Of a stretch of 64,000 nt of DNA, positions 12,100-52,800 are shown piece after piece. The DNA is from Eutreptiella sp. 'Long Island Sound 2002' (Eukaryota; Euglenozoa; Euglenophyceae; Eutreptiales; Eutreptiaceae). The notes beneath the pieces are model-generated. The model was not told where the DNA came from. It did not search any database and was given only the letters and a program-made list of their open reading frames with translations. Position 1 is the first letter of the stretch. Every line of letters begins with the position of its first letter. The DNA lies in assembly GCA_964036045.1 (NCBI GenBank), contig OZ038378.1, positions 60,871,408 through 60,935,407 of the forward strand, given 5' to 3'. The translations under genes and the position numbers were made by a program.

Positions 12100-13115
<1,016 letters not shown>

Positions 13116-13234
13116 GTGACCCCACAAAATGGCCACCAATTGACCCACCAAAGCCTTAGGGTCAACACACATACAGCTACCAGACCACAACAGGGCACGT
13201 GGACGCTTTGACCCCCCCCCTTCCGTGAAAACGC

Positions 13235-13450
<216 letters not shown>

Positions 13451-13854: not shown

Positions 13855-14755
13855 AGATCTTGGGGCCTGCCACAAACCCAGCGCTGTCCCAACCGTAATC
13901 ACCAGAATACTCACCGATCAAATAGTCAGAGACATAGCTGTCCGCAGTATGGGGCCCAACCACTTCTTGCGATCAGGACCATACCAGCTAGACAAATCCA
14001 CCTTGGGGGCGGCCTCCTTCTTCTTCCCTGCAGCTGCGAACATGGCAACCGATGACGTGTACTGAATGGCAATCTCAAGGATCAACATGTTCTACACAAA
14101 TGGATCAGTCATGTGGCAGGGCCAGTTCTCAACAGGGCCCTGGCCGGCGTCGGCAAGGTGCACGTAGTAGCCGAAGATGAAAAAACATTGCCTAACGGCC
14201 GTTCATGATCTCCTTCACGTTCAGCTCGGCAGCCATATCAGAATCGTCGCCCAAACCCAGAGGGTCAAATCACTTGCCATCAGGGTACACCAAATCAAGG
14301 TCACGTCCACCGAATGGACCACCGTTCACACGGTAACCCGCGATGGCACCCATCGGAACAACCTGGTAGGCCAACACGGCATGGATGAACTGGGCGCGCA
14401 CCAACACGGGGGCACCCATGTAGTTCAAGCCATGAGACTCGAAGATCATGGCACCAGCCTTGAACCACACACCTTTGCTGGCACCATTGTTGCTGGCCGT
14501 GTGCGTCTGCAGGAGCTCAGGGGTCAGGCACTAGAGAGTACCCAACATAGCCCGGCGATCTTGCAGCACCTCAGCCTCGCTGAGGCGCTTGAAGGTTTTG
14601 GGGTCTGCTGCATGCCCAGCGCTGTCCCAACCGTAGTCACCAGGGTACTCACCGGTCAAGTAGTAAGGGACGTAGCTGCCCGCAATGTTAGGGCCCACTT
14701 CTTGCGGTCAGGGCCATACCAGGCCGACACATCCACCTTGGGGGCGGTAGTCTTC
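13855..14755 (-). pseudogene. Last LHCII unit plus trailing N-terminal fragment
   Basis: The unit starts with [14 protein letters not shown] and the same 4-nt deletion as its neighbour 1.47 kb upstream. It has TAG replacing Trp near 14,533, TGA near 14,272, a diverged third helix, the linker near 14,020 and a further N-terminal fragment ([12 protein letters not shown]...DYGWDSAG) that fades out near 13,855. The array therefore ends within a unit, not at a stop codon. Confidence 0.7.
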
Positions 14756-15490
14756 TTCTTCCCAGCAGCTGCGAACATGGCAAAAGATGGCGTGCACTCG
14801 GCGGCAATCTCAAGGGTCAACCTGTTCGCCGCAAATGGCTCAGCAATGTGGGAGGCCCAGTTCTCAACAGGGCCCTTGCCGGTGACCGCAGCCTGCACGA
14901 AGCAGCCGAACATGGAGAGCATCGCCAAACGGCCGTTCCTGATCTCCTTCACTTTCAACCCGGCAGCCACATCAGGGTCGTCGGCCAAACCCAGAGGGGC
15001 AAATCACTTGCCATCAGGGTACACCAAATCAAGGTCACGGCCACCGAATGGACCACCATTCTCACGCTAAGCGTGGATGGCACCCATCAGAACAACCCGG
15101 CAGGCCAACACGGCATGGATGAACTGGGCGCGCACCAACATGGCGGCACCCATGTAGTTCAAGCCATCAGACTCGAAGATCGTGGCACCAGCATTGAACC
15201 ACACACCTTTGCCGGCTCCATTGTCGATGGCAGTGTACTGCTGCAGCAGCCCAGGGGTCAGGCACCAGAGAGTACCCAACAGAGCCCAGCGATCGTGCAG
15301 CACCTCAGCCTCGCGGAGGCGCTCGAAGGTTTTGGGGTCCGGTGCATGCCCAGCGCTCACCCAACCGTAGTCACCAGGGTGCTCACCGGTCAAGTAGTCA
15401 GGGACGGAGCTGTCCGCAGCGCCAGCGCCCAACCACTTCTTGCGGTCAGGGCCATACCAGGCCGACAAATCCACCTTCGGGGCGGCAGCC
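14755..15490 (-). pseudogene. LHCII unit with variant N-terminus
   Basis: Reads [37 protein letters not shown], the first helix, second helix and VVLMGAIHA, then a stop near 15,067; a TGA at the KxFDP position near 15,003; then [26 protein letters not shown] and the linker. The GAGAAD variant is shared with the first inverted unit (GAGTAD), which hints at their common origin. Confidence 0.75.
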
Positions 15491-16225
15491 TTCTTCTTCC
15501 CTGCAGGTACGAACATGGCAACAGATGGGGTGTACTGGGTGGCAATCTCAAGGGTCAACCCGTTCTACGCAAATGGATCAGCCATGTGGGACGCCCAGTT
15601 CCCAACAGGGCCCTAGCCGGTGACGGCAGCCTGCACGTAGTAGCCGAACATCGAGAGCATCGCCAAACGGCCGTTCCTGATGTCCTTCGCCTTTAGCTCG
15701 GCAGCCACATCAGGGTCGTCGGCCAAACCCAGAGGGTCAAATCACTTGCCATCAGGGTACACCAGATGAAGGTCACGTCCACCGAATGGGCCACCGTTCA
15801 CACAGTAAGCCTCGATGGCACCCATCAGGACAACCTGGCAGGCCAACACGGCACGGATGAACTAGGCCCGCACCAACACGGGGGCACCCATGTAGTTCAA
15901 GCCATCTGACTCGAAGATCGTGGTACCAGCATTGAACCACACACCTTTGCCGGCACCATTGTTGATGGCCGTGTACGTCTGCAGCAGCTCAGGGGTCAGG
16001 CACCAGAGAGTACCCAACATAGCCCAGCGATCTTGCAGCACCTCAGCCTCGCTGAGGCGCTTGAAGGTTTTGGGGTCTGCTGCATGCCCAGCGCTGTCCC
16101 AACCGTAGTCACCAGGGTACTCACCGGTCAAGTAGTAAGGGACGTAGCTGCCCGCAATGTTAGGGCCCACTTCTTGCGGTCAAGGCCATACCAGGCCGAC
16201 AAATCCACCTTCGGGGCGGCAGCCT
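15490..16225 (-). pseudogene. LHCII unit with 4-nt deletion after KKW
   Basis: Follows the linker with [14 protein letters not shown], then loses four bases (frameshift) before the GPNIAG segment, which resumes near 16,170. It continues through the first and second helices, a TAG replacing Gln near 15,865, a TGA near 15,740, the third helix, a TAG replacing Lys in VTGKGP near 15,616, and a TAG before NGLTLEIA. The same 4-nt deletion occurs in the unit at 14,020-14,755. Confidence 0.75.
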
Positions 16226-16468
16226 TCTTCTTCCCAGCAGCTGCGAACATGGCAACAGATGGCGTGCACTCGGCGGCAATCTCAAGGGTCAACCTGTTCG
16301 CCGCAAATGGCTCAGCAATGTGGGAGGCCCAGTTCTCAACAGGGCCCTTGCCGGTGACCGCAGCCTGCACGAAGTAGCCCAACATGGAGAGCATCGCCAA
16401 ACGGCCGTTCTTGATTTCCTTCACTTTCAACCCGGCAGCCACATCAGGGTCGTCGGCCAAACCCAGAC
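16225..16468 (-). pseudogene. LHCII C-terminal fragment at the inversion edge
   Basis: Reads [26 protein letters not shown], the third helix, then [34 protein letters not shown] and the Lys-rich linker into the next unit with no stop. It is the minus-strand continuation beyond the inverted block. Confidence 0.75.
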
Positions 16469-17075
16469 CTGTTGAGAACTAGGCCTCCCACATGGCTGAT
16501 CCATTTGCGTAGAACGGGTTGACCCTTGAGATTGCCACCCAGTACACGCCATCTGTTGCCATTTTCGCAGCTGCGGGGAAGAAGAAGGAGGCCGCCCCCA
16601 AGGTGGATTTGTCGGGCTGGTCCGGCCCTGACCGCAAGAAGTGGTTGGGCGCTGGCACTGCGGACAGCTACGTCCCTGACGACCGGTGAGCAACCTGGTG
16701 ACTACGGTTGGGACAGTGCTGGGCATGCAGCAGACCCCAAAACCTTCGAGCGCCTCCGTGAGGCTGAGGTGCTGCACGATCGCTGGGCTCTGTTGGGTAC
16801 CCTCTGGTGCCTGACCCCTGAGCTGCTGCAGCAGTACACTGCCATCGACACAGGAGCCGGCAAAGGTGTGTGGTTCAATGCTGGTGCCACGATCTTCGAG
16901 TCTGATGGCTTGAACTACATGGGTGCCCCCGTGTTGGTGCGCGCCCAGTTCATCCATGCCGTGTTGGCCTACCGGGTTGTTCTGATGGGTGCCATCCAGG
17001 CTCACCGTGTGAATGGTGGTCCATTCGGTGGACGTGACCTTGATTTGGTGTACCCTGATGGCAAGTGATTTGACC
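16468..17075 (+). pseudogene. Inverted LHCII block, first unit
   Basis: Plus-strand homology starts abruptly at PVEN (with TAG replacing Trp), then ASHMADPFA, a TAG, NGLTLEIA, linker and a new N-terminus; it has a frameshift after YVPD near 16,680. It is otherwise open from [13 protein letters not shown] to YPDGK, then TGA near 17,067. The transition at 16,468 from minus-strand DDPD to plus-strand PVEN is the other inversion breakpoint. Confidence 0.7.
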
Positions 17076-17470
17076 CGGTACCTGACTGCAAAGCTGCTGC
17101 AGAAGTACACTGCCATCGACAATGGTGCCGTCAAAGGTGTGTGGTTCAAGGATGGTGCCATGATCTTCGAGTCTGATGGCTTGAACTACATGGGTGCCCC
17201 CGTGTTGGTGCGCGCCCAGTTCATCCATGCCGTGTTGGCCTGCCAGGTTGTCCTGTACGTGCCATCGAGGCTTACTGTGTGAACGGTGGCCCATTCGGTG
17301 GACGTGACCTTGATCTGGTGTACCCTGGTGGCGAGCGACTTGATCCTCTGGGTTTGGCCGACGACCCTGATGTGGCAGCCGAGCTGAACGTGAAGGAGAT
17401 CAGGAACGGCCGTTTGGCGATGCTCTCGATGTTCGGCTACTACGTGCAGGCTGCCGTCACCGGCCAGGGC
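17075..17470 (+). pseudogene. Inverted LHCII block, second unit (C-terminal part)
   Basis: Plus-strand reading gives [21 protein letters not shown], the second-helix region, a frameshift after VVLY, then [23 protein letters not shown], a sense codon (CGA) at the position where most units have [24 protein letters not shown], the third helix [11 protein letters not shown], and a break at VTGQG near 17,468. It joins the previous inverted unit by an internal deletion near 17,075. Confidence 0.7.
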
Positions 17471-17692
17471 CGTACCCAACATAGCCCTGCGGTCCTGCAG
17501 CACCTGAGCCTCGTGGAGGCGCTCGAAGGTTTTGGGGTCTGCTGCATGCCCAGCGCTGTCCCAACCGTAGTCACCAGGGTGCTCACCGGTCAAGTAGTCA
17601 GGGACATAGGTGCCCGCAATGTTAGGGCCCAACCACTTCTTGCAGTCAGGGCCATACCAGTCCCTTAAATCCACCTTGGGGGCGGCAGTCTT
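17470..17692 (-). pseudogene. LHCII unit 3, N-terminal fragment cut by inversion
   Basis: Contains [17 protein letters not shown] to the first helix ([14 protein letters not shown]), where the chlorophyll-ligand His of the EVLH motif is Gln and the following W is R. Homology then stops at about 17,470 and resumes on the plus strand, marking one end of the inverted block. Confidence 0.7.
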
Positions 17693-18430
17693 CTTCTTTA
17701 GCAGTTGCGAACATGGCAACAGATGGCGTGCACTCGGCGGCAATCTCAAGGGTCAACCGGTTCGCCGCAAATGGCCCAGCAATGTGGGAGGCCCAGTTCT
17801 CAACAGGGCCCTTGCCGGTGACCGCAGCCTGCACGTAGTAGCCGAACATCGAGAGTATCGCCAAACAGCCGTTCGTGATCTCCGTCACCTTCAGCTCGGC
17901 AGCCACATCAGGGTCGTCGGCCAAACCCAGAGGGTCAAATCACTTGCCATCAGGGTACAACAGATCAAGATCACGTCCACCGAATGGACCACCATTCACA
18001 CGGTAAGCCTCGATGGCACCCATCAGGACAACCTGGCAGGCCAACACGGCATGGATGAACTGGGCGCGCACCAACACGGGGGCACCCATGTAGTTCAAGC
18101 CATCAGACTCGAAGATCGTGGCACCAGCATTGAACCACACACCTTTGCCGGCTCCATTGTCAATGGCAGTGTACTGCTGCAGCAGCTCAGGGTTCAGGCA
18201 CCAGAGAGTACCCAACAGAGCCCAGCGATCGTGCAGCACCTCAGCCCCGCGGAGGCGTTGGAAGGTTTTGGGGTCCGCCGCATGCCCAGCGCTGTCCCAA
18301 CCGTAGTCACCAGGGTGCTCACCGGTCAAGTACTCAGGGACGTAGCTGTCTGCAGTGTTGGGGCCCAGCCACTTCTTGCGGTCACGGCCATGCCAGCCCG
18401 TCAAATCCACCTTGGGGGCAGCGGCCGTCT
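17692..18430 (-). pseudogene. LHCII unit 2, nearly full length
   Basis: This is the best-preserved unit: from the linker [17 protein letters not shown] through the first helix ([15 protein letters not shown], with the Glu and His expected to bind chlorophyll), second helix, [17 protein letters not shown], an in-frame TGA near 17,938, then [18 protein letters not shown], the third helix and [13 protein letters not shown]. The linker into unit 3 is frameshifted. Apart from the TGA the frame is open for about 240 codons. Confidence 0.8.
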
Positions 18431-18885
18431 TCTTCCAAGCAGCTCCGATCATGGCAACCGACGGAGATGGCGTGTACGGGGTGGCAATCTCAAGGGTCAA
18501 CCTGTTCACCGCAAATGGATCAGCCATGCGGGAGGCCCACTTCTCAACAGGGCCCGGGCCGGCGACCGCAGCCTGCACGAAGCAGCCGAAAATGGAGAGC
18601 ATCACCAAACAGCCGCTCCTGATCTCCCCCACCTTGAACCCGCCAGCCACATCAGGGTCGTCGGCCAAAACCAGAGGGTCAAATTACTTGCCACCTGGGT
18701 ACACCAGATCAAGGCCAAATCCACCAAATGGACCGTTCACACGTTAAGCCTCGATGGCACCCATCAGGACGACCTGGCAGGCTAACATGGCAAGGATGGA
18801 CTGGGCGCGCACCAACACGGGGGCACCCCTGTGGTTCAAGCCATCTGACTTGAAGATCATGGCACCTACCTTGAACCACACGCGC
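18430..18885 (-). pseudogene. LHCII unit 1, 5'-truncated
   Basis: This most upstream unit starts abruptly at [10 protein letters not shown], i.e. ahead of the second helix, so the N-terminal third is missing. It has a stop where other units have EAYRVNGG (after MGAIEA), then a TAA at the KxFDP position where the other minus-strand units have TGA. It continues through a diverged third helix ([11 protein letters not shown]) to the linker. It is the most diverged copy. The sequence upstream is the unrelated GC-rich dispersed repeat. Confidence 0.75.
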
Positions 18886-31277: not shown

Positions 31278-32687
31278 ATGGAGGGATTGGACGACCATCC
31301 CAATGCTCCGACGGAGACTGTCCCCCCACCCCCATGCTCTAATACCACCCAGAATGGAATGGTTAATACGAGGCGTGTTTGTGGAGATGACATCTTGGCC
31401 GCAATGTGCCATGCCCTGACTAATGGCCCAGGCAGCCCCACGGCCCAATTGCAACATGTTGAGTCATTGCTCCGTGACGATTGGGAACGCCCACTTGACG
31501 TGATCATTCCTAGTTTGGGGTCTCAAAGATACAGGCTTGAGGCACGCCATTTGCGGGATGTTTACACAGAATCTTACGTCACAGAGAGTGCCAAGATTGT
31601 TGTGTATTAGTGGTGGCTTACCCGGAGAGCTTTGAGTGCGGACCGGGATCTTATGGATATGGTGTGGGTTGTGTGTAACTCATTGTGGAATGTGTCATCT
31701 GCACCGTGGGGTCGTAGGAAGGTGTTGGCTGAGTCATGGGTGCACCGTACTTTGGAAGCGGAGTCCATTGATATGGTTTATGTGCCTCCCTTGCTTGCAG
31801 CGCAAATATATAATGTGCGCAATACACATTGGGTGCTGCGCTTGTTGTTGGTTTCCCCAACACGCACTTTCTTGTGCCTCGTGTTCGATCCGCTGTGTAA
31901 CAGGCCGTACATAGTGGGTGCAAACACTGAGGTGTTGGCCATAGTCAACCTCATTGCCGAACAAGAAGGCATTGAGCCAAGGCCGCAAAAGAAGTGGGAC
32001 AAGTTTTTGGGTGCGTTTGGCAGTGTAGCTTTTGCTATAGCCCCCCTCTACTCCATCTTCCTACATCAAGAAGACGGTGTGAGCTGCCATCCTGCCTGCC
32101 CTTTGATGCTACACTGCCTTTTGTCTAGGCGTGTTGTCAACGGTAGCATCCAACTTCCACAAGATAGATTGTGGTTGTTGCGTGAGATTGCACAGGCAGC
32201 TTTGCACTATCGCGATTCTGCGCATGCCTCCTCTATTCAAACCACACCCAGTTGGGCCTTGGCACGGATGTATGCTAGGCCCTATTGTTCACCCGGCCGT
32301 TCGTCGTGCTTTTTTTTTTGCGACGACACAGTCCACATCACGTGCCCTGAATGTGGAGTTTATCAGTGTGCCCTGCATGCTTCCATTCAGTGTCCCTCGG
32401 AGCTGTGTGTGGCCTCGCTCAACTGGAGAGTGCAATTTACTGCCACACTAGCATGCGTTGCATTGGCATTCACGTTTGGTGACCGGCTTGTGGCCGACAA
32501 GCCGCCTTCTGTAGATGAGGTCCTTCCAAAGGTGGTGATCCGTGGTAAGGAATTTTTTGTTCCAGAGCATTGCCCCAAAGATGCCTCTAGTAAATTGCAG
32601 TATGACAAAAAATTGATTGAAGAATTGGATATGAAGACCACGGACGTGCTTCGCAACATGTGCAAGCACAAGCCTCCCTCAGCATAA
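31278..32687 (+). CDS. Ulp1/C48-family cysteine protease, interrupted by one TAG
   Basis: One frame of 470 codons is open from ATG 31,278 to the stop at 32,685 except for a single TAG at 31,608-31,610 (residue 111). The catalytic set of Ulp1/SENP peptidases is in order and spacing: His in NTHW (residue 184), Asp in VFDPL (204), Gln in LHQEDG (264) and Cys in GVSCH (270). The Q-to-C spacing of six equals that of Ulp1. A WLTRRAL segment just after the TAG resembles the usual substrate-binding start of the domain. A Cys-rich stretch (CDDTVHITCPECGVYQC) follows the protease domain and could bind zinc. Such enzymes deconjugate SUMO-like proteins in hosts; as transposon cargo their role is unclear. 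The single stop may be a recent mutation. Confidence 0.7.
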
Positions 32688-41180: not shown

Positions 41181-43302
41181 TTAGAACTTCTTTGCATATT
41201 GTGGGCATTGTGTGTGTATTTGGACCTGGGTCCCGGTTTTTTGTCTTGTACATGGACCTCCTAACCCATGGCAGGGGTCCCCGGTCCCAGCTCCGGGTGC
41301 CCCTAGTCCCCCCCCCCATATGGCCCCTTGCCAGTGAGGACTTATCCGCTCTCACGCTGGGTAGGCTGGTTAGTGGCACCTGCAAATTTTTCAACATTCG
41401 ATTTTTTGTGAAACCCCTCCGTTGTCCCTAGGATGGGTTTGGGTGATCATTTGGTGACAATACGGGTAGTGGAGCACCCATTGGGACCCACGTAATTGCC
41501 GGTAGGTTGCTGTGCCCGCGAGGGTTGCGGCTAAGCTTTTGCGCGTTGGCGCCACGGCTAATGAATGAACTATGGCGAGGCTGCAGCGCCAAGTGCGGGC
41601 GCTCTAGGATATGATAGCACTTCTGCAAAACAAGCTCGCGGAGGAGCACACTAAGGTGCACGAGGGCGCCCCCGCACAGGCAATGCGCCCTCCGTGACGG
41701 CTGCGGAACGTACGACAAGGGGCCCCTTCCAACTAGGTGTGGCCCGGACGAAACCGGCCGCCCTAGCTAGGCCCACGGCCTGCTAATGTGCCAAGCGGTC
41801 CAATGCCACTTTGTGTCCCGCTCCTGCGGGGGCCAAACCTCCGCGGTCCCTCTGCTTCCGGAAGGGGTGCGGCACTGGCCAACCACTTGGAGCACTGCCC
41901 TAGGTGCACGTGGCGGTTGGCCCATCTACCCTCCCATCCCTTCATCGCCTTGTAACCGGGGTGGGCCCGCGAGGACATCGCAGCCGCGTAGGGCCTCATC
42001 AATATCTGGCGCATGGGCTTGGTTCACGAAGGCGAAGCGCTGCTGGCGTGGGACCAATCCGCAAGGGCTATGTCGCGGCGGCACGGCCGGGATGTGGGTT
42101 GTGGGGGGCTAAGCTGGCACGCGTGCATGTTGTCGCAGCCGTGGGCCGTGCAGGCTCCATGGCGCCACCGGTGCCGCCGATGGTGGAGGTCCTCCGGGAC
42201 CTGCTGCTGTTGACTACGGCGGTACAACCTCGGCGCCTCTTCCAGGGCACCACCAGCAACATCCTGTGGGAGTGGGGGTTCATCGAGGTCATCGTGGGCA
42301 GCACCCTGCCGAATGGAGGCAACACTCCCAGGAGGGGCCCTTGGATTGTCTGCCTTGGTGGGCTACACGGTCCACGAGGCGCACTTGGCGGCGGCCGCTG
42401 CCTTCGCGGCTCACTACTCTACTTTGGGTCCGCCATTTCCTAGGGCCGGCGCTCTGTGCGGAAAGCGCACTACAGGGGCGTCCGAGGGAGTGCTACGCTC
42501 GCTTCCGTGCGCCCCGGCCTGTGCAACAGCGTTGTGATGGTAGGGGCAGTCTTGCTTCCCCCCTAGACGTTCACCACAGCGGTCACCCGCCTAGCCATGG
42601 TGGATTTAAGCCCCGTAGGACACATCCTCCACGTTTGTGGGGAGCGGCCTACTGAGGACGACGACCGCTAAGCGGAGGAGCTTCTTGTTGCGGTGGAGAT
42701 TGTGTGTCGCTAGACGGTCAATTCCCGGCCACGACGTAGGTCGCTTGCATCTTTGGATCCGGCTGTCCTTGCGGACCCGAACGTACAACGGCTCAATGTT
42801 TCTAGCAACACCGGGCGACAGCTCCGCCTTTTGATGTGGTCAATTGTGCCGCATCCCCGCCCATGCAGCTGCCCGTCTGCAGGCAAGTCGAGGTCGGCAT
42901 GGGCTTGCTCATGGACCTCATCCGCACGGTGCTACCAGATTGCGGCAAGACACGGGGGGTGCAATTCTGGTTGTGGATCACCGCGGGCGCCTGCTGCCCC
43001 CACCGCCTATGTCTTGTGGTTTAACTAGCCACCGGATCGAGGGCCGCCTACAGAGGCTTGGAAAGTTGTGCTTGCTAACCATCAACTTGACGGGCAGTTC
43101 GCTTGGGTCATTGATTGGTGGTCGCTAGGCAACATTGACGTCTGCTTGTGGCGTACCAAGTTGGCAAACCCCGAGGTCGCGGCCCACATTGCAGCCGTGG
43201 TGGGAGCCCTAGCCCCCGTCACAGACTACTTTGGTCGGGGTCTGCGGCTACCCGGTCAACTTGGGGCCGGTGGAGGACTACGCCGAGCTTTGGTGCTTTG
43301 CG
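41181..43302 (+). pseudogene. Decayed transposon coding sequence
   Basis: GC-rich sequence with coding-like fragments in shifting frames: a coiled-coil-like piece near 41,571 (MARLQRQVRAL, TAG, DMIALLQNKLAEEH), VEVLRDLLLLTTAVQPRRLF near 42,180, and LANHQLDGQFAWVIDWWSLG then NPEVAAHIAAVVGALAPV near 43,068-43,220. Stops and frameshifts are frequent. The style matches the transposon ORFs of families T1 and T2 but I could not assign it. Confidence 0.4.
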
Positions 43303-44516
43303 GCCGAGGTCCCGTTGCACCCAACGGGGCCACACCTCCTTGGACCGACGGATCTTTTACCTTCAGTAGGAGGGCATCCCCGAGTATTGGCAAGGCCGCC
43401 TTGGGGCCACCGGCACGCGGCTACCCGACTGCATGTGGGACTCGACCATGCGCACCACCCGGCACGGGCAGTACAAGGCGGTGGGGTCCCATGCGCATCT
43501 GTCGCCCCGCAGGGTCTGGCGAGGAGGTGGCTGCCAACCGGGAGGCCATGGACGACACGGGAGACCGGAGCACAGAGGAGTCGGCAGCGGCCGGCATGAA
43601 TGAGGCAGAGGATGAGGTAATTATACATTCTTACACCTCATGTGCCTTACCTAAATCGTGATGGGCAGAGCCTAGCGATGCACGGTTTTGCTCTAGCCCC
43701 CAAGGGTGGGGCTGCTGCGGGGTGGGGTGGGGTGGGGTTGGGGGTTGGGGGTGGCTCCACAAGCGTGGCATCCCAAGACGTGCCTGGCCGAGGTGCCGTT
43801 GCACCCAATGGGGCCACACCTCCTTGGACCGGCCGATCTTTCACCTTCGAGTAGGAGGGCATCCCTGACCATTGGCAAGGCGCCCGCCTTGGGGCCACCG
43901 GCACGCGCCTACCCGACTGCATATGGGACCAGACCATGCGCACCTCCCTGCACGGGCAGTACGAGCCGGTGGGGTCCCATGCGCCTCCGTCGCCCCGCGG
44001 GGTCTGGGGAGGAGCTGGCTGCCAACCGGCAGGCCATGGATGACACGGGAGTCCGGAGCACAACGGAGTCGGCGGCGGCGGGCATGAATGAGGCGGAGGA
44101 TGAGGTAATTATACATTCTTACACCTCTTGTGCTTTCCCTTAGTCGTGATGGGCAGAGCCTAGCGATGCCGGGTTTTGCTCTAGCCTCCAAGAGTGGGGC
44201 TCGTGCGGGCTTGGGTGGGGTGGGGTTGGGGGTTGGGGTTGGCTCCACAAGCGTGGCGTCCCAAGACGTGCATGGCCGAGGTCCCGTTGCACCCAATGGG
44301 GCCACACCCCTTTGGACCGGCCGATCTTTTACCTTCGAGTAGGAGGCCATCCCCGAGTATTGGCAAGGCGCTCACCTTGGGCCCACCGGCACGCGCCTAC
44401 CCGACTCCATGTGGGACCGTACTATACGCACCTCCCGGCATGGGCAGTACCAGCCGGTGGGGTTCCATGCGCGTCCGTCGCCCCGCGGGGTCCGGGGAGG
44501 AGGTGGCTGCCAACCG
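43303..44516 (+). repeat. ~487-bp tandem repeat, units 1, 2 and start of 3
   Basis: Units start with GCCGAGGT(C/G)CCGTTGCACCC at 43,303, 43,787 and 44,275 (periods 484 and 488). Landmarks are GGCTGCCAACCGG, ATGACACGGGAG, GAGGTAATTATACATTCTTA and a GGGGTGGGGT tract. Unit 3 is interrupted after GCTGCCAACCG at 44,516 by the T1 transposon and resumes at 51,402. Confidence 0.9.
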
Positions 44517-44556
44517 TGTACCCTTCGTGAACGGCCGTTAAGTGGCCGTTTGAATA
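44517..44556 (+). repeat. Left TIR of transposon T1
   Basis: TGTACCCTTCGTGAAC, then an 11-nt insert containing GGCCGTTAAGT, then GGCCGTTTGAAT. Inverse of the right end at 51,372-51,401. Confidence 0.9.
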
Positions 44557-44769
44557 ATTGCGTGAATTTCACGTGAATTTACCCAAATTTTGAGGTTTTT
44601 GGGGGAAAATGCCATATTCTTGGTTCATTGCAAGGGCTTTGAGGGGCCAAACTTCCTCCCCTAGCTTTGTTACGCATCATCCAATGAAAGTCCCGCCCCA
44701 AAAGCATCCATCATGTCCGAACCGTGCCCAAAACGAGAGGTGCCGGAACCCGGCAAGCCTGTAGCCGAT

Positions 44770-44855
44770 TCCCAGCCGTGAATTCACGTGAATTCGTACG
44801 AAATTCGCACGAATTTCGTACGAATTTCACGTGAATTCACGTGATTTTATACAAA
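44770..44855. promoter_or_regulatory. Palindrome cluster 1 of T1 (left subterminal)
   Basis: Contains AATTCGTACGAAATTCG, a GCACGAATTTCG variant, another CGTACG core and repeated TTCACGTGAA palindromes. It lies between the end of the transposase gene and the left TIR, so it is more likely a binding site than a promoter here. Confidence 0.6.
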
Positions 44856-44957
44856 TGTTACCCGTGAGCACCCCCTGACTTGTCCTCACACCCCTAGTAA
44901 GCCCCCCAGCATGCACCCCGGTCACAGGCAACAATGGTCTGGGTTTGTAAGGTGATC

Positions 44958-46720
44958 TCATGTCCGTCTCTTGCGGCACCGGAACCGCCGCTGTAGAGTC
45001 TGAAGGTGCTGCATGTCGGTTAGAAGCCGTCTTCTTGTGCGGCTTGCATACGTTTGTACACTTATGGGCCCTTGCCCATGTTGAGCCCTTTTGGTCGCAT
45101 CCCACCCATGCAACCAAAGGCTATCATCAATGGTGTGGTTGTCCACAACCAGTTGCACCCGTAGTCTCCCCCGGAGGAGGCTTAGGCCCCCGCTGTTGCG
45201 CAACATGCGCTTTAGCCTCCGGTGACTTCCCTCCTTGGCAAAGCAGGAGAACTTTGACAAGATTCTCCACTTCTTTGCAAAATAATACATGTGGTCGATC
45301 CAAAGATGCGTCCACAAAAGTTTGCCCCACTGGAGCTCATTGTGGGCAGCGCCCATGGCTATGCTATGGTTCCGGAGCCGCCCCAAGTCGGCCCCGGAGA
45401 ACCATGCGGAACGCCACGCGTATACACACATGCTTGCAAAATTCTCCCACCACATATTGCACACCGACTCCCAACTTTTTCCCCCTACTTGATGCTGCCT
45501 CACACTAGGTTGCTCTAGGCAAGCATCTATTATCTTCTCCCAACCCCTATTCCGCATGAAATGGATGGCAGCAACACACTCCATCCTCACCTTCCCATTG
45601 CCGTTTGCCTTGTCATTATTTAATGAGGCACGGGTGCAAGTTCGTGCAGCAAGCCGTGCCTCATCTAGAACCGGTTGCAGCATGGTGCGTGCCACAGTGG
45701 CCGGGGCCCCCTTGTCAATTGTACAACTAGGTCCCGAGTCCCGTTGACTGCACACAACAGGACACGAAGGACCCCATGGAGGCCATAATCAGGCACTCGC
45801 CTATCACTCGTAATGGTCCTATATATAGCATTTATGGCAACGGCTGGTTCCCAGTTGCCGTCTATCGCACTTGCTGTGCCAAAGGTAGCAAGGCACAGAG
45901 CACGGTTACGCATGCAGACCCAACACACAGTGGCACCAAGGGATTTTGCCTTCCAGTTTTGGCAGCCCGCCATGAGCACCTGTGCCTTACCATCTGCACA
46001 CAGAAAAAAAAGGGACTGCCTATCGTTCCCTGCCGTATCCTTAAAACTTACGGTTGCGGCCTTGCGCAACTCATCATCAAAATCAATTTCCTGGGAGGCC
46101 GCGTAGAGGGTCTCCCACTTTTCACTGCCCCCTAGTAGCCACCAACTAGATAGTTGGTTGGGGCTGGCGGTGTCACCAAGCGTGCAATGGGCGTACGAGG
46201 CCTCATGCCTTGATGTACCGTCCACCGCAATAGGCAACCAATGCAGCCGTCGGTCCCCGGGCTGCATGATGGCCGAGGGTGGGGGTGGTCGACACTTGAA
46301 TAGGTCGCCGATGCGGTCAGGTAGGTAGCAGGCCGCACCATTGATGGCCGTGTTGTCACCCGTATAGGCAGTGAACGCCCGGGACTCCGGCAACGCTAGC
46401 TGCCGAAGCATGCCGTACACCTGGTCCCATACCACACCGTACGTCATGCTCCCCACTAGGTACCGGGACTCCGTCCTAGAGAGGTGCAATGACCGGATCC
46501 TTCAGACGGCCATAATCAACCTCTCCTCCTGGGTGGGCTCGGGCTGGACGGTGGCTACAATTCTTGTTTCGGGGGTAAGCACTATTTGCCCCGTGTCAGG
46601 CAGGTACTTGACGGTGTAGCGTGCTGCAAGCTCCTTGGTAACAACCTCCTGGAGCTGTTGTAGGCGCCGCCGTCGTGTACGATCCGCTAGCAGATGGAAT
46701 GGCTCCTTGGGCCGTGGCAT
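44958..46720 (-). CDS. T1 RNase H-fold transposase-like protein, interrupted
   Basis: Starts at ATG 46,720 (MPRPKEPFHLLADRTRRRRLQQLQEVV). One frame runs to 45,665 with a single TGA at 46,502; a frameshift near 45,720-45,750 moves to the frame ending at 44,958. The order of motifs resembles DDE transposases with an RNase H fold: IAVDGTSRH with the first Asp, FLCADGKAQVLMAG with the second, a CWVC pair as in zinc-bearing insertions, VPDYGLHGVLRVL, and a C-terminal helical region with WTHLWIDHMYYFAKKW and FAKEGSHRRLKRML. The catalytic Glu cannot be assigned by eye. Total length about 585 residues. It is last in the array of three genes. The family is not recognised with confidence; the transposase role is inferred from the motifs and from the element. 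Confidence 0.6.
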
Positions 46721-46814
46721 GGTGTGAGATACAAGATTTGATGAACGGGCAGGCAGTCATCGCAAAGTTTCTACCATCCCCCTCCCGCAGACAACTCTCT
46801 CTACTGTGATTCGC

Positions 46815-46965
46815 ATGCAATTTGAAGAAATTCACATAAATTCGCATAAATTCGCACGAAATTCGTACGAATTTCGTGTGAATTTCACGTGAATAGAAAT
46901 GTGTCAATATTCTGAAAATGTGAAATTCGTACGAATTTCGTGCGAATTTCACATGATTGTCACAG
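46815..46965. promoter_or_regulatory. Palindrome cluster 2 of T1, upstream of the transposase-like gene
   Basis: GAAATTCGTACGAATTTCGT and its variants with TTCACGTGAA occur here, ending about 97 bp before ATG 46,720. A second stretch near 46,922-46,945 repeats the same core. Confidence 0.65.
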
Positions 46966-47368
46966 AATTTCTGCCAAAGCCTCATCCTTCTGCCCTCGTT
47001 GACCCTCACAAAGCAAGCTCAGGATGGTGCTCATGGGTTATCACACACCCAGTCCAGTGGCTGTCATTCCGGCTGTCACTCAGCCAGCAGTGTAACACGT
47101 CAGGGGGCATAGCATACCCCAAATAAAATACAAACAGTTCCGCAGAAAAAATCGCAAACAGGTCAGGGGGCACACCGTACCCCAATTAATGTACAAACAG
47201 TGCTGCAGAAAATTTTGTACGGTGGGGGGGGAGTACCCCACATATCGGTCAAACTGCCCATGCTTGGGGGGGGGGGGGGGGCAAGGATAACATTCGTCGT
47301 GGTTAGAAAGGACAGGTGCTCCGGAGGGTACCTATGCACCCCCCCCCCCCCCGGGAGCAGAGCTCCGG

Positions 47369-48852
47369 CTAGCGGAGCCCTGGGAGCTCTGCTCCGCCAC
47401 CGCCTCCACAAAGGAGGGGTCCATGGCCGCCGACGTGAGGCGGTGGGGGGGGGTACTGCCGGCGCACTTCCTCCATTGCGGCGGTCACCTTGGAGGCGTC
47501 GGGGGCCACGCTGTCCACATCGACCTGCTTGCCACTGGCCATCATGGCCATCCGCAAGCCGGTGGACACTGCGGACATCTGGCCGGCGCATGCCTCGGCC
47601 TCGGCATGCCAGGCCTTTGCGCCGGCCAGGAGGTACCGGACACTGGCAGCACTGGGCCCCCCCTTGTCACCCGGGGGGGCGGGGGCCTCGGCACCCTCAA
47701 CCCTTTCCACTGCCTCTGCTGGCTGTGCCGCTGGCTTTGCCCTGCGCAACGTCGCCACGTCGCGCTCAAGAGTCTTCACCTTGGTGGCCAGCCGGTCACG
47801 CTCCTTGGTGACGTCCGGCAACCGCGACTCGCAGTCTCGCCTGTCCTCGTTGGCCCTGGACAGACGGGCCTCGAGGTCGCGGTTGGCGGCCTCAGCGCTG
47901 ATGGCGCGTGCCTCCCACGCCTCCGCCCGCTGCTGGTCCACCCACTCTTGCACCACCCCCCTGTGCCCCCGCCCCCCCACCGGCTCCGCCTGCTCCGCCC
48001 GCAATGCCCGCTCCGCCGGGGTGGCCGTACGCGGGGCTTTGGGGGGGGGGGGGGCGTGTCCCCTTTGAGGCGCCCTTTCCGCTTGCGCGTGGGTGGGGGT
48101 TCGTCCTCCTCGACGTCAATGACGTCAACCACCACCCCCATCTTCCGCTGCCTCCCCACATGGACGCGCATGGCAAGCCATGCCATGTCCACCCACTCCG
48201 GCCTCCGCTGCTCCCAACCCGTGAGCACATTCAGCCCAAAAACCCCAGCCGTCGTCACCGTCCCCGCCTCCCCGATCCGCGACACCCCCGTCTGCACCCG
48301 CCAGTGCCCACTCACAAGCCGGTAGGCAAACATGCCCACCAGCTCCTGCCCCGCAGGCAGGTTGGCCCCCCCCCGGACCACAATGGGGCAGGGGAAGGAG
48401 ATGCGGAGGGTGCCCTGCACCCCCCGCGACTCCAACACCATGTCCCACACGGCACTGAGATGCCGCTGCCGCCCATCGGGCCCGGGCGGCACCTGCTGGG
48501 TCCAGGCCGGATCCGGCTGCCTGGCGGCCAAGGTGACCCGGTCCAGGGGGGGGTCGTTGTGGGCGTCGCCCAACTCGTCGCGGGACGGCTGGGGCACCAC
48601 CACCTCGCGCGCCACATGCCCCCTGGCGGTGCTGGCCTCGCTGCCTCCCGAACGTCGAGAGCGCTGCGACCCCTCACTGCGCACACTGCCGGCCTCACTT
48701 GGTGCCCGTCCACCGCCGGTGCCTACGGGCTGGTCGCCACCGGGGCCTTTGGCGGGCTCGGCGTGCTCCTCGGGCAATCGGGGCCGGGGCTTGTACTTGC
48801 GCTTGGTGTGGTGCCGAATATCCGGCGACCAAGCGGTGAACGGGACCTGCAT
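47369..48852 (-). CDS. T1 Pro-rich/coiled-coil protein, frameshifted at a G run
   Basis: Starts at ATG 48,852 (MQVPFTAWSPDIRHH). The N-terminal part is basic and Ser/Gly-rich. It is followed by a globular-looking stretch (LSAVWDMVLESRGVQGTLRI, FPCPIVVRGGANLPAGQELV, GMFAYRLVSGHWRVQTGVSR), a segment VVVDVIDVEEDEPPP and a KRKGRLK basic cluster. The frame is then lost at the G run 48,041-48,053 and resumes in another frame with a clear coiled coil (NRDLEARLSRANEDRRDCES, TKERDRLATKVKTLERDVAT) to the stop at 47,369. Joined length about 490 residues. The frame change exactly at a homopolymer suggests a sequencing or replication-slippage error. No family recognised; as second gene of the element it may be a DNA-binding or structural partner of the transposase. 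Confidence 0.55.
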
Positions 48853-48934
48853 GCAGATGTGGGGAGGTGTGCCACACACAAATTGAGAAAGGCGGAGTGG
48901 ACACGAGGCATTGCAAGAGCAAAAGGAGCAAATT

Positions 48935-49075
48935 GGACGAAATTCACAGAAATTCGTACGAAATTCGTACGAATTTCACATTTCGAGAAAATTCAAACAA
49001 ATTTATTCACGTGAAATTCGTACGAAATTCGTACGAATTTCGTACGAATTTCACGTGAATTTCGTCCAATTTGCC
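48935..49075. promoter_or_regulatory. Palindrome cluster 3 of T1, upstream of the coiled-coil gene
   Basis: The richest cluster: five CGTACG cores in GAAATTCGTACGAATTTC contexts plus TTCACGTGAA, itself flanked by inverted copies of GCAAATTGGACGAAATTCAC. It starts about 89 bp upstream of ATG 48,852. The open frame of the upstream gene terminates inside it (49,051). Confidence 0.7.
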
Positions 49076-51027
49076 AATACGGAGAGCAAACACACAAGCA
49101 AGCACACCTTGCACTCGCATGGGCAGGGGATGCTCCATGCCCCGGTCCTCGCGCACTTGGGCGACCGCCACGCTGGGACCGTGTTCACCAGGTGCCACAG
49201 CGTGGTCGGCCGACCCGGGGGGGCAATGCCGGAGATGGCGAAGTGGATCTCCGACTCCGCGTCGACATCGCCCCCCTTGCAGACCTCCAGGTGGTGCACG
49301 CTGCCCACGAAGAACAGCATGCAGTGCTCGCCGACCTCGATGACGGCGAGGTCAGAGGCCGGGGCCGACCGGGAGATGAAGGTGGGGTGCAAGGGGCAGG
49401 TGGTGGGGCCTGCCGGGAGCGTATGGGGGGGGTCGGCGAAGAGGGCCTGGGCAGCCTCCCCCTCCCACAACTCCACCCTCCCAACCGCCCCCTTCCCCAC
49501 CCACAACACCTGGTCCACGCTGGGGAGGTCCCAGCTGGACAAATCCCCAGCAACGTCCAGGGCCTCCTTGGGGGGGGTGGCGTCCAAGTGTGTGGTGTTG
49601 GCCTGGTCGTGTTTGTGTCGGGGGTCGGGGGTCCACAAGTTAAAAAGAGCCCCCTGCAGCCCATCCTTGGAGTCGGGGAGGGCAGGCAATCCATGATGGC
49701 GGCTGGTGGCCACCATCAGCAGCATGTCCCCCCGATGCAGCTCAACGGTGTCCCAGCGCGCCTCCCCCGCCTCCCCCAGGGCCGTCCCCGCCTGCACCGC
49801 CACCTGGTAGTCCTCTGACAAGCAAAGGAAGCTACTCAGGTGGCAGTCCCCCACCTCCCTGTCGTGGGCAGGGAGGACCTCGGGGTGGGTGGTCACGTCG
49901 GTGTGGGGGAGCTGCGGCCCGCTCCCCACACTGGCCACAATGACGCTGCCCGGCGTCATTGGGTGGAGGTCCCCAACCCCCGGGACACTTTCGGTGAGGT
50001 GGGGGTGGAACTTCTTGAAGAGAGGCCCCCCCACGCCCGACCCCAAGGTGCTCTTGCTTTGCCAACGGCGGGGGAGCGCAGGATCCTTGGCCTGCTCCTC
50101 ACTCTGCGCGGCGTTGAAAAGGAGCTCAAAATTCTTTGCGACGACTTTTTCGTCGCCGCTGCCCCACGCCTTCATCACCTTGTTCCACCCCACCTCACAA
50201 TCCCGTGCCTCCACAAGCCCCCGAAGCACAATGTAGCCGTTCCCATCAACAAAGTTGAGGGGCGGCTGAGAGGGGCCAACCCTGTTGGGGGCGGGGTCAG
50301 GGCTGCCCATCACCCCATGAGGGGGGTCGGGAAGGGGTTCGGTGCGGACGGGGGGCTCACTCGAAATGAAAAGGGGGGCGCATGAGGCACCACGGTACCA
50401 TTGCAAAGAAGTTGTGCTATAGAAGGTGGGGTGGGTGACGTCGGGGACGTGCACCTGGGGGGGGATGGTGGGATGGAAAGGGGCGATGCCCAAATCATCC
50501 CCTCACCGGGGGTTGGCAAGATGCCAAGAAAAGGGGAAAAAAGAGTGGTCTGCTGGTGCACCTGCAGCAAGATCCTGCAGGCACACCATATCGCAGTGGG
50601 GGGGGGTGTGGACGAGGTTAGTGGTGGGGTACACCTGGACGTGGGCGTCCTTAGGCTTCCCCACAGGGTTATTCCTCATCGAGTTGAGGAGCTAGTCAAC
50701 ACTGGAGGGGAGAGGGGTTAGATGGAGAAATTTGAGGGTGGGGAGTTGGCGGCGCAGTTCCCTCCACAGGGTTGTGGCCCATCCCCTCCCCCCGAGGTAG
50801 CTGTTGCGGGTGGGGCTGCGCATGTCGATGTGGATGACATCGGGGGAGGGGTCGAGGGAGGCTGCCCAGCCAACGATGTCATCCACCCCCAGTGCCTTCG
50901 ACTCGTACGTTGCCTCCTCCAATTGATGGTGGGCAACGGGGAGGGCTTGGTAGTGGGCGAGGGTGTCGGCTGCGGGGTCGGGGCGCGAGGCCAGGCTTGC
51001 GAGTTCAGACATGGTCTGCTGGGACAT
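49051..51027 (-). CDS. T1 2-oxoglutarate/Fe(II) oxygenase-like protein, interrupted
   Basis: Starts at ATG 51,027 (MSQQTMSELASLASRPDPAA). A TAG near 50,694 follows SSVD; homologous-looking coding resumes immediately (LLNSMRNNPVGKPKDAHVQV), then changes frame at the G/C run near 50,600 and at about 50,500 enters a 480-codon frame. Numbered from 50,493, that frame has NGYIVLRGLVEARD (about 85-98), an H-x-D pair in QLPHTD (197/199) at the start of a predicted double-stranded beta helix, then HRGDMLLMVATSRHHGLPAL with the distal His (266 or 267), a Lys nine residues later where a 2OG-binding Arg is usual, and GALFNLWTPD. This is the jelly-roll pattern of Fe(II)/2OG oxygenases. A C-terminal domain of ~170 residues (DLSSWDLPSVDQVLWVGKGA onward) is unassigned. 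Substrate unknown; nucleic-acid bases are one possibility. Confidence 0.6.
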
Positions 51028-51084
51028 TGTTAAAAGAGAAGAACGCGAGGACTTTGAGAGCTGTAACAAAGCGAAAGAGTGGAA

Positions 51085-51215
51085 AGGAGGGTAAATTCGT
51101 ACGAAATTCGTACGAAATTCGTACGAATTTCACATTCTCGCGAATCTGTGAATCTAGCGTGAATTTCTGCGTGAATTTAGGTGCGTGAATTTCACATTCA
51201 CGCGAATCTCACCAA
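51085..51215. promoter_or_regulatory. Palindrome cluster 4 of T1, upstream of the oxygenase gene
   Basis: Three tandem AAATTCGTACG units followed by TTTCACATTC and GTGAATTTC words, starting about 66 bp upstream of ATG 51,027. Same motif as the other three clusters. Confidence 0.65.
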
Positions 51216-51371
51216 ATGTGTTAAACCATGCGGGGACTTTAAACCTCTAAATTGCACCTATTTGTTGCATCTTACTTTGGGCGAAGGTAGCACGACAAAA
51301 GCACACGATAGCACCAAGTTACGAGCAAAACACAGCAAAATTGGGTGAAATTTACGGTACCGTGAATCTCG

Positions 51372-51401
51372 GATTCAAACGGCCGGTTCACGAAGGGTAC
51401 A
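51372..51401 (-). repeat. Right TIR of transposon T1
   Basis: ATTCAAACGGCC then GTTCACGAAGGGTACA, the inverse complement of the left TIR without its 11-nt insert. Confidence 0.9.
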
Positions 51402-51640
51402 CGGGAGGCCATGGATGACACGGGAGACCGGAGCAGAGCGGAGTCGGCTGTGGCCGGCACGAATGAGGCGGAGGATGAGGTAATTATACATTCTTACACC
51501 TCATGTGCCTTACCTTAATTGTGATGGGCAGAGCCTGGCGATGCCGGGTTTTGCTCTAGCCCCAAAAGGTGGGGCTACTGCGGGGTGGGGTGGGGTGGGG
51601 TTGGGGGTTGGGGGTGGCTCCACAAGCGTGGCATCCGTAG
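51402..51640 (+). repeat. Remainder of the 487-bp repeat, unit 3
   Basis: Continues unit 3 from CGGGAGGCCATGGATGACAC through GAGGTAATTATACATTCTTA and the GGGGTGGGGT tract to GTGGCATCC, where it departs from units 1 and 2. Confidence 0.9.
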
Positions 51641-52800
51641 ACGTGAATCGCGGTAGTGGTGGTGGCACGGCGGCTATGGTTCGACTGGCCCCTCCTCATT
51701 GTTATTTATGCCTCATGGACCTGGTGAGATCTAGGGCCACACCCGCCGGTGCGGTCACGGAGCCTGTGGCATGCACCCCCCCCCCCCCCTTCACCATGGC
51801 CCAACGCCGGTAGCATGGCCTAGCTTGTGCCGCTAGAACCGCGTGGTAGCCCAAGTGTACTCCGCCACCATGTAACGGGCTAATTGGGCCTCGGCGGCGT
51901 GCGCATTCGCCCCCATACAAGGCCTTTGCCTTGGAGTCTCACGGCTCCGGGATGTCGTTGCGTTGGCGTGGAATAGCTAGTGGCAGACCCACGGCTTGCC
52001 CAAGGATACCGCCGTGGGGCTCTTGACCAGCGATGGCCCCTTTGAGCCGAGCTGGGCCCACAAGGGCCACCGTCCACGAGGACGTGGCCGGGCGCTTCCC
52101 TAGGCCCTTTTTTGCGTGCAGCCCAGGCCCCTATCCCCACTCCTTTGTCCATGCCACCCCGTGGTGGTCGTACTTGGAGCCGCTCTAGTTGGAGGAGAGG
52201 GGCATCCCCATGCACCGCTTGCACAACCCCATGAGGGTGGAGGAGTGGCCCTCCCCCCGCACCTATGGCTCCTCGGACCCCTCCTTCGCCTCGCCAACTT
52301 CGAGGGCGTCGCGGCGGAAGGCCACGCCCCCGCCACGGGCGACGATTGGGAGTCCAAGTGTGGCACAACGACCCCTCTGCCCCCTCTCTAGCTCCAATGC
52401 GCACTTTGCGGAAATAGCTGATGCGGTGCTTGCTCTCTGACCCGGTGATGTCGCGGACGCCTTGTGGTCCTCTGTGCTTGGTCCCATCGACGCGTGTGCC
52501 GGCTGCGATCCGGTGTATGCCGCCCAGCCCCGGCCACGACTACCTCTTCAAGGTGGCGGTAAAGGCGGACCGTTTTGCTGCGGCTTGGGGGTTCAGTCTA
52601 CCCTCCCCTTTGCGGGCATATGCCAGCCAGCCTGCCTACAACTGGTCATGGGCCTCCTCTAGCCCCCGCTCCGTCCCCGAACGAGGCCGGTCTTTCTGCA
52701 TTATCTCCATGACGTGTTGCCCACGGCGCGCTTGTCCAAGACGCTCCGACTAACCTATTGGCAGGCCCCTTCGCTTGTGCTAAGCCCCCCCCCCCCCCCA
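51641..52800 (+). pseudogene. Decayed transposon coding sequence, continuation
   Basis: GC-rich coding-like debris. Near 52,150-52,220 it reads HATPWWSYLEPL, TAG, LEERGIPMHRLHNPM, which resembles the FTFEEEGIPDHWQGARL reading of the 487-bp repeat, so the two belong to the same lost gene. Several TAG stops and C runs follow (52,787; 52,842). Confidence 0.4.

What the first reader, a model, noticed from the sequence alone, without database searches (positions are those of the whole stretch)
44517..51401. A DNA transposon that carries a 2-oxoglutarate/Fe(II) oxygenase-like gene
Seen: a 6.9-kb unit with matching inverted ends encodes three minus-strand genes, one with the H-x-D ... H jelly-roll pattern (PHTD, HRGDMLLMVATSRHHG). 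Established: TET/JBP-type 2OG oxygenases that modify DNA bases are known as passengers of some fungal and algal transposons (the KDZ group). Inference: this element may couple transposition to base modification of its own CpG-containing palindromes, or use the oxygenase against host silencing. The transposase-like protein is not obviously a KDZ transposase, so this may be a separate lineage.
Basis: partly seen in the sequence, partly recalled or inferred. Interest (0 to 1): 0.9.

Follow-up and report, generated by a model that had tools for sequence, protein, structure and literature searches.

The report
Jumping gene with oxygenase-like passenger
A well-delimited 6.9-kb cut-and-paste transposon, probably from a eukaryotic genome, carries a probable transposase, a coiled-coil protein and a possible iron-dependent oxygenase, each gene framed by arrays of small CG-containing palindromes, which would make it an interesting self-protecting mobile element if the oxygenase is real, but this copy looks damaged and the oxygenase is not proven.

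Summary
The transposon is real; the oxygenase is plausible but unproven. The 6,885-bp unit has perfect 16-bp inverted ends (28 of 29 bases match if a 10-nt insertion is skipped). It interrupts a 488-nt tandem repeat: repeat positions 1-40 lie left, 39-282 right, best read as a 2-bp CG duplication. This rules out KDZ and fits PlavakaA (TGT..ACA ends, 2 bp), a branch of the CACTA/Plavaka-type (CMCT) clade. Gene 1 has D, D, C(2)C, H(4)H, E in that clade's order; no profile matched. Gene 2 has a coiled coil. Gene 3 has HxD...GDMLLM...H, but the bare triad occurs in 89% of shuffles and a stricter, post-hoc pattern in 6%; Pfam, NCBIfam, PHROGs and PDB sequences gave nothing, and both AlphaFold models failed (pLDDT 33, 32). 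The copy is probably defective: two in-frame stops in gene 3, a stop and a frameshift in gene 1, a frameshift in gene 2. Four arrays of 11-bp-spaced TTCGTACGAA-type palindromes frame the three genes. Best reading: a CMCT-like transposon with array-directed anti-silencing. Other copies could not be sought: the genome server did not complete (12 of 12 requests) and the protein database was off.

The parts
44517..44555 (+). Left terminal inverted repeat: TGTACCCTTCGTGAAC plus GGCCGTTTGAAT after a short internal duplication
   Evidence: 16 of 16 identical to the right end, then a 10-nt insertion and one mismatch, then 12 of 12
51373..51401 (-). Right terminal inverted repeat
44515..44516 (.). Target site duplication CG, left copy (usual reading)
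   Evidence: 488-nt repeat unit positions 1-40 end here, and position 39 restarts at 51402
51402..51403 (.). Target site duplication CG, right copy (usual reading)
43302..44516 (.). 488-nt tandem repeat array that was the insertion target; two units upstream keep the empty site
51402..51645 (.). Remainder of the interrupted repeat unit
   Evidence: 93% identity to unit positions 39-282
44958..46720 (-). Gene 1: probable CMC/CMCT-type DDE transposase. Candidate residues D (46222-46220), D (45994-45992), CWVC (45925-45914), HLWIDH (45308-45291), E (45233-45231). Broken by TGA 46504-46502 and a frameshift near 45.75 kb
   Evidence: frames; CWVC and HLWIDH positions and shuffles (D...CxxC plus H(3-4)H...E in 280 of 5000 shuffles); D and E chosen by eye; no profile match in Pfam or NCBIfam
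47369..48852 (-). Gene 2: proline- and arginine-rich protein with a C-terminal coiled coil; frameshift at a run of 14 C at about 48.04-48.05 kb
   Evidence: only weak coiled-coil-type matches below the curated cut-offs
49051..51027 (-). Gene 3: candidate Fe(II) oxygenase, HTD (H codon 49905-49903, D codon 49899-49897) and distal HH (49698-49693); in-frame TAG 50694-50692 and TGA 50505-50503
44779..44848 (.). Palindrome array A (left end, half array)
46827..46970 (.). Palindrome array B (between genes 1 and 2): two inverted arms and a 31-nt spacer
48930..49072 (.). Palindrome array C (between genes 2 and 3), reverse complement of array B (91 of 103 positions identical)
51091..51139 (.). Palindrome array D (right end, half array)

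Best explanation
This is one copy of a three-gene cut-and-paste DNA transposon of the CMCT kind (CACTA/Plavaka/Transib-like), with PlavakaA-like ends, inserted in a satellite-like repeat at CG (insertion and ends shown; clade inferred from motifs and ends). Gene 1 is the transposase (inferred). The palindrome arrays that frame every gene are binding sites for an element protein, most simply gene 2 or the N-terminal part of gene 3, as CACTA subterminal repeats are for TNPA and VANDAL repeats for VANC (inferred). Gene 3 is a double-stranded-beta-helix Fe(II) oxygenase that is brought to, or acts over, these CpG-containing arrays and removes or alters methyl marks at the element's own promoters, so that the element escapes silencing (inferred, least certain step). 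The copy in the window has lost function through stops and frameshifts (stops and shifts shown; loss of function inferred).
For: Exact ends and target site. [quoted passage not shown] gene 1 has D, D, CWVC, HLWIDH, E in that order (D and E by eye). TTCGTACGAA occurs 12 times in the element and once in the other 57 kb; TTCACGTGAA 6 times and 0. The six array arms aligned share one oriented core. Gene 3's composition by codon position is alike on both sides of both stops (GC1/GC2/GC3 0.65/0.49/0.75, 0.63/0.44/0.69, 0.66/0.50/0.76, 0.65/0.49/0.87). The window has CpG observed/expected 0.68 with TpG+CpA at 1.29, as expected if CpG is methylated. Precedents: 11 lineages of fungal transposons carry TET/JBP genes (PMC12730594); VANC binds tandem motifs in non-coding parts of its own element and causes loss of methylation (PMC5735166 passages; PMC10398659 abstract).
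Against: Gene 3: no match in Pfam, NCBIfam, PHROGs, PDB sequences or phage records, although Pfam holds TET/JBP, AlkB and PhyH-type models (recalled). Gene 1: no Pfam or NCBIfam match, and only chance-level PHROG (E 0.34) and PDB hits (best E 0.13, a hexosaminidase; 1.7; 0.77). AlphaFold gave no fold (pLDDT 33.1 and 31.6). Motif patterns are only 1 in 16-18 against shuffles and were written with the sequence in view. The usual 2OG-binding Arg after the distal H is not evident (by eye; a K at +9 and a Q at +13). CMCT elements mostly have CA..TG ends, which these are not. The inverted ends do not share the array motif beyond chance (538 of 2000 shuffles score as high). No second copy of the element was available.
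Confidence: 0.3

Rival explanations
1. A CMCT-like transposon in which gene 3 is not an oxygenase but an element-specific accessory or DNA-binding protein. The palindrome arrays are then transposase or TNPA-type binding sites that shape transposition and promoter control, with no DNA modification.
For: No family match for gene 3; the triad is common in shuffles; TNPA binding to subterminal repeats is established in CACTA elements (PMC2613891 passages).
Against: The stricter strand-plus-triad pattern is met in only 1 of 50 window frames of at least 200 aa, this one, and in 309 of 5000 shuffles (pattern post hoc).
Confidence: 0.4
2. Gene 3 is a true oxygenase but a captured host gene with a metabolic or protein substrate, carried passively or acting on chromatin proteins or RNA rather than DNA.
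For: No match to any Pfam model, TET/JBP included. By eye the HTD context lacks the Asn that follows HxD in TET/JBP proteins (recalled). GC3 of genes 2 and 3 (0.69-0.87) differs from gene 1 (0.60-0.62), so the genes may differ in origin.
Against: Gene 3 lies between two palindrome arrays like the other two genes, so it looks like an integrated part of the element.
Confidence: 0.25
3. A chance inverted repeat around unrelated sequence, not a mobile element.
For: The unit is a single copy in the window.
Against: Perfect 16-bp ends, a precise junction inside a repeat whose neighbouring units keep the empty site, and interior arrays almost confined to the unit.
Confidence: 0.01

Closest known systems
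PlavakaA (CMCT clade DNA transposons, Kojima 2025, PMC12730594)
   Same: 2-bp target duplication (usual reading here), TGT..ACA ends, and transposase motifs C(2)C and H(3-4)H before the last E
   Different: Reported there from fungi; [quoted passage not shown] Gene 1 has no Pfam match, so sequence kinship is not shown
TET+ fungal transposons (Kyakuja, Dileera, hAT7, EnSpm, ESTA, PlavakaB and others; PMC12730594)
   Same: DNA transposon that may carry an Fe(II) oxygenase gene next to its transposase
   Different: The candidate oxygenase is not recognisable as TET/JBP. In the sections I read no palindrome arrays at gene borders are described; for one compared pair of TET genes the paper states that there is no palindromic sequence at their ends
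VANDAL/VANC anti-silencing elements of Arabidopsis (PMC5735166, PMC10398659)
   Same: Genes VANA, VANB and VANC in VANDAL21, and dense arrays of a short motif in non-coding parts of the element
   Different: VANC is not an oxygenase (recalled); the VANC21 motif is non-palindromic and arrayed in one orientation
CACTA/Spm with TNPA and subterminal repeats (PMC2613891)
   Same: Repeated motifs near the ends, able to form palindromes, bound by an element protein
   Different: CACTA ends and a 3-bp duplication in the element described there; motifs are subterminal, not between genes
CMD1 of Chlamydomonas (PMC11065753 passages)
   Same: Algal Fe(II) enzyme with HxD but without the usual 2OG-binding sites, preferring CpG
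   Different: TET homologue and host gene; gene 3 matched no solved-structure sequence

Membership tests
KDZ (Kyakuja-Dileera-Zisupton) | 7-8 bp target duplication | tested here: not met
   2-bp CG on the usual reading, 0 bp on the other; KDZ values from PMC12730594
PlavakaA | 2-bp duplication and TGT..ACA ends | tested here: met
   against PMC12730594 section 3.2.2. Caveat: CG is its own complement, so one copy also allows ends GTGT..ACAC with no duplication
PlavakaA | transposase related in sequence to Plavaka | tested here: inconclusive
   no Pfam match up to E = 10 for the three gene 1 pieces; no Plavaka sequences were available to align
CMCT clade | D, D, C(2)C, H(3-4)H, E in the transposase | tested here: inconclusive
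   order present, but D...CxxC plus H(3-4)H...E occurs in 280 of 5000 shuffles; conservation not testable without relatives
CMCT clade | 2-5 bp duplications and, in most cases, CA..TG ends | tested here: inconclusive
   2 bp fits; ends are TG..CA, as reported for PlavakaA but not for most of the clade
EnSpm/CACTA | CAC..GTG ends and 3-bp duplication | tested here: not met
   TGT..ACA ends, 2 bp; criteria
TET/JBP dioxygenases | profile or sequence match to the family | tested here: not met
   no Pfam match and no PDB sequence match at E up to 10
TET/JBP dioxygenases | oxidation of methylated bases in DNA | not testable with these tools
   needs an enzyme assay
2OG/Fe(II) oxygenase superfamily | HxD...H metal triad | tested here: inconclusive
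   present; bare triad in 4461 of 5000 shuffles, strand-plus-triad pattern in 309 of 5000
2OG/Fe(II) oxygenase superfamily | double-stranded beta helix fold | tested here: inconclusive
   single-sequence AlphaFold at pLDDT 33.1 and 31.6, unusable
2OG/Fe(II) oxygenase superfamily | Arg/Lys that binds 2-oxoglutarate after the distal H | tested here: inconclusive
   by eye in the translation, no Arg at the usual spacing; K at +9, Q at +13

The most novel reading that the evidence does not exclude
A CMCT-type transposon outside fungi that encodes an Fe(II) oxygenase outside the recognised TET/JBP sequence families and carries its own address label, CpG-containing palindrome arrays at the borders of every gene, so that oxidation of methyl marks is directed to the element's own promoters: an oxidative counterpart of the VANC system.
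Probability: 0.15. Interest if true: 0.85.

Novelty: new variant of a known kind. Interest (0 to 1): 0.5.

Why it matters
Transposons that carry DNA-modifying oxygenases are documented in fungi (PMC12730594). An independent case with a different enzyme, plus built-in arrays at each gene border, would show that oxidative anti-silencing evolved more than once and would offer a natural targeting system for it. Even without the oxygenase, the inverted palindromic modules at all gene borders are an unusual layout.

Tried and rejected
Relatives: the search for related loci for the gene 3 frame and a gene 1 piece gave nothing in viral contigs or genome contigs (9 and 49 pattern matches, none confirmed by tblastn). 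tblastn of the gene 3 frame against phages and of a gene 1 piece against plasmids found nothing at E up to 10; the reverse pairs were not run. The 16-bp end occurs in 5 viral contigs, once in each held stretch, without its inverted partner, array motifs or encoded relatives: taken as chance, though the expected number was not computed. A 21-bp array core occurs in 7 viral contigs, one exact match each; the held stretches encode no relative of the element's proteins, and by eye 6 of the 7 contexts resemble each other, as in a shared coding sequence: rejected as relatives.

Introns as an explanation of the stops: no GT[AG]NG...AG intron of 40-400 nt removes the gene 1 stop, and no single one removes both gene 3 stops. 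Single introns could remove each gene 3 stop separately (8 and 13 candidates; for these the downstream frame was checked only to the end of the scanned stretch) or bridge the frameshifts in gene 1 (26) and gene 2 (85), so introns are not excluded there. A homopolymer sequencing error is possible for gene 2.

The ends as array-type binding sites: not above chance. Other copies in the window: none by tblastn (E up to 0.01) or blastn (E up to 0.001) against the other 57 kb. Rfam: no match in the window at gathering scores. Gene 2: one chance-level PDB hit (E 0.52). Foldseek and VIA-align were not run because both models were meaningless. PADLOC was not searched.

Papers: in the listed part of searches (20 of 68 papers; 20 of 41; 15 of 32; 15 of 28; 10 of 57) no title or abstract start described an algal or protist transposon with such an oxygenase; this library lacks most subscription journals, and Iyer et al. 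2014 is not held. I read the abstract and sections 1, 3.1, 3.2, 3.4 and 4.2 of PMC12730594 plus passages; the abstract of PMC10398659; and passages only of PMC5735166, PMC2613891, PMC11065753, PMC12344493 and PMC11244446.

Full report
What is in the sequence. The window reads as eukaryotic rather than prokaryotic: only 17 ORFs of 280 aa or more in 64 kb, simple repeats and a 488-nt satellite-like repeat, no Rfam match at gathering scores. This is inference; the host could not be named. The unit at 44517-51401 begins and ends with the same 16 bases in inverted orientation. Beyond them, a 10-nt insertion in the left end (a duplicated GGCCGTT) and one mismatch are followed by 12 more identical bases, and by eye patchy similarity goes on for about 80 nt.

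Proof of insertion. The unit splits a 488-nt tandem repeat. blastn with one intact repeat unit places unit positions 1-40 at 44477-44516 and 39-282 at 51402-51645, so positions 39-40, CG, are present on both sides. Two upstream units keep the uninterrupted junction CCAACCGG. The usual reading is a 2-bp target duplication with TGT..ACA ends. Because CG is its own complement, one copy also permits ends GTGT..ACAC with no duplication. Either way this is the strongest result here: a mobile element with a precise junction.

Which transposon. The same paper gives 2 bp and TGT..ACA for PlavakaA, and C(2)C with H(3-4)H between the second catalytic D and the E for the whole CMCT clade, most of whose members have CA..TG ends. 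In gene 1 I find, in order, D (IAVDGTS), D (CADGKAQ), CWVC, then across a frameshift HLWIDH and E (FAKEGSH). A combined pattern of this sort (D...CxxC in the first piece, H(3-4)H...E in the second) appears in 280 of 5000 shuffles, so the motif alone is modest evidence, and it was chosen with the sequence in view. With the ends it makes a CMCT transposase the best reading, without a Pfam or NCBIfam match and with only chance-level PHROG and PDB hits.

The candidate oxygenase. Gene 3 runs in one frame from ATG 51027 to the stop at 49051, crossed by TAG and TGA; base composition by codon position is alike in the four stretches measured. By eye the C-terminal two thirds read like a double-stranded beta helix enzyme: GYIVLRGLV, helical stretches, PHTD, LSSFLCLS, HRGDMLLMVATSRHHG, GALFNLW. 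The controls are sobering: a plain triad is in 4461 of 5000 shuffles, the stricter pattern in 309 of 5000. Pfam, NCBIfam, PHROGs and PDB sequences give nothing for gene 3. A second HxD (PPHCD) lies upstream, between the two stops. I put a true oxygenase fold at about 0.55 (0.3 in the best reading plus 0.25 in the captured-gene rival) and action on DNA at about 0.3.

The arrays. The core TTCGTACGAA occurs 12 times in the element and once elsewhere in the window; TTCACGTGAA 6 times and not elsewhere. They form four blocks: half arrays inside each end, and two full arrays between the genes. Each full array is a pair of inverted arms around a 31-nt spacer, and the two full arrays are reverse complements of one another at 91 of 103 positions, spacers at 23 of 31 (0 of 10,000 simple shuffles reach that). 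The six arms align with one oriented core, so each of the three genes is flanked by an inverted pair of the same arm. Neighbouring palindromes are mostly spaced 11 bp, about one helical turn. This fits tiled binding by a dimeric protein, as with CACTA subterminal repeats (PMC2613891 passages) and VANC target arrays (PMC5735166 passages). Each TTCGTACGAA holds two CpG sites, so methylation could control binding; that is inference.

State of the copy. Gene 1 has one in-frame stop and one frameshift, gene 2 one frameshift at a homopolymer, gene 3 two in-frame stops. A simple intron cannot explain the gene 1 stop in the scan made, but could explain the others. The copy is probably dead or non-autonomous, or in part misassembled.

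Host methylation. CpG is depleted (observed/expected 0.68) and TpG+CpA raised (1.29) over the window, 0.75 and 1.25 in the element. This agrees with CpG methylation in the host but does not prove it.

Verdict. A genuine DNA transposon, probably CMCT-like, with an unusual array layout and a possible, unproven oxygenase passenger; the mechanism offered is array-directed anti-silencing. The result that would settle most of it, a survey of other copies, was blocked: 12 of 12 requests to the genome server did not complete and the protein database was switched off.

Noticed in passing
43302-44516 and 51402-51645: 488-nt tandem repeat (about 2.5 units, 90% alike) that was the insertion target
   Followed up: yes
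50598-50590: A second HxD (PPHCD, context LVHTPPHCDMV) in gene 3 between the two in-frame stops; by eye a little like the HxD of JmjC-type domains
   Followed up: no
44958-51027: GC3 of gene 1 (0.60-0.62) is below genes 2 and 3 (0.69-0.87), so the genes may differ in origin or age
   Followed up: no
47094-47212: About two copies of a 63-bp direct repeat just downstream of gene 2
   Followed up: no
31632-32687: 351-aa plus-strand ORF that looks by eye like a Ulp1-type protease; no Pfam match at E up to 0.1
   Followed up: partly
10176-11414: 412-aa ORF with a CxxC...H...C knuckle, perhaps the C-terminal end of a non-LTR retrotransposon protein (by eye); no Pfam match
   Followed up: partly
17610-18785: 391-aa ORF with a sub-threshold Pfam match to 2OG-Fe_Oxy_2 (E 0.078, 13.1 bits against a cut-off of 23.1), probably chance
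   Followed up: no
14177-18785: Several ORFs share a repeated peptide (like [24 protein letters not shown]), an unexplained repeat family
   Followed up: no
12747-13433: About 690 bp of AT dinucleotide repeat
   Followed up: no
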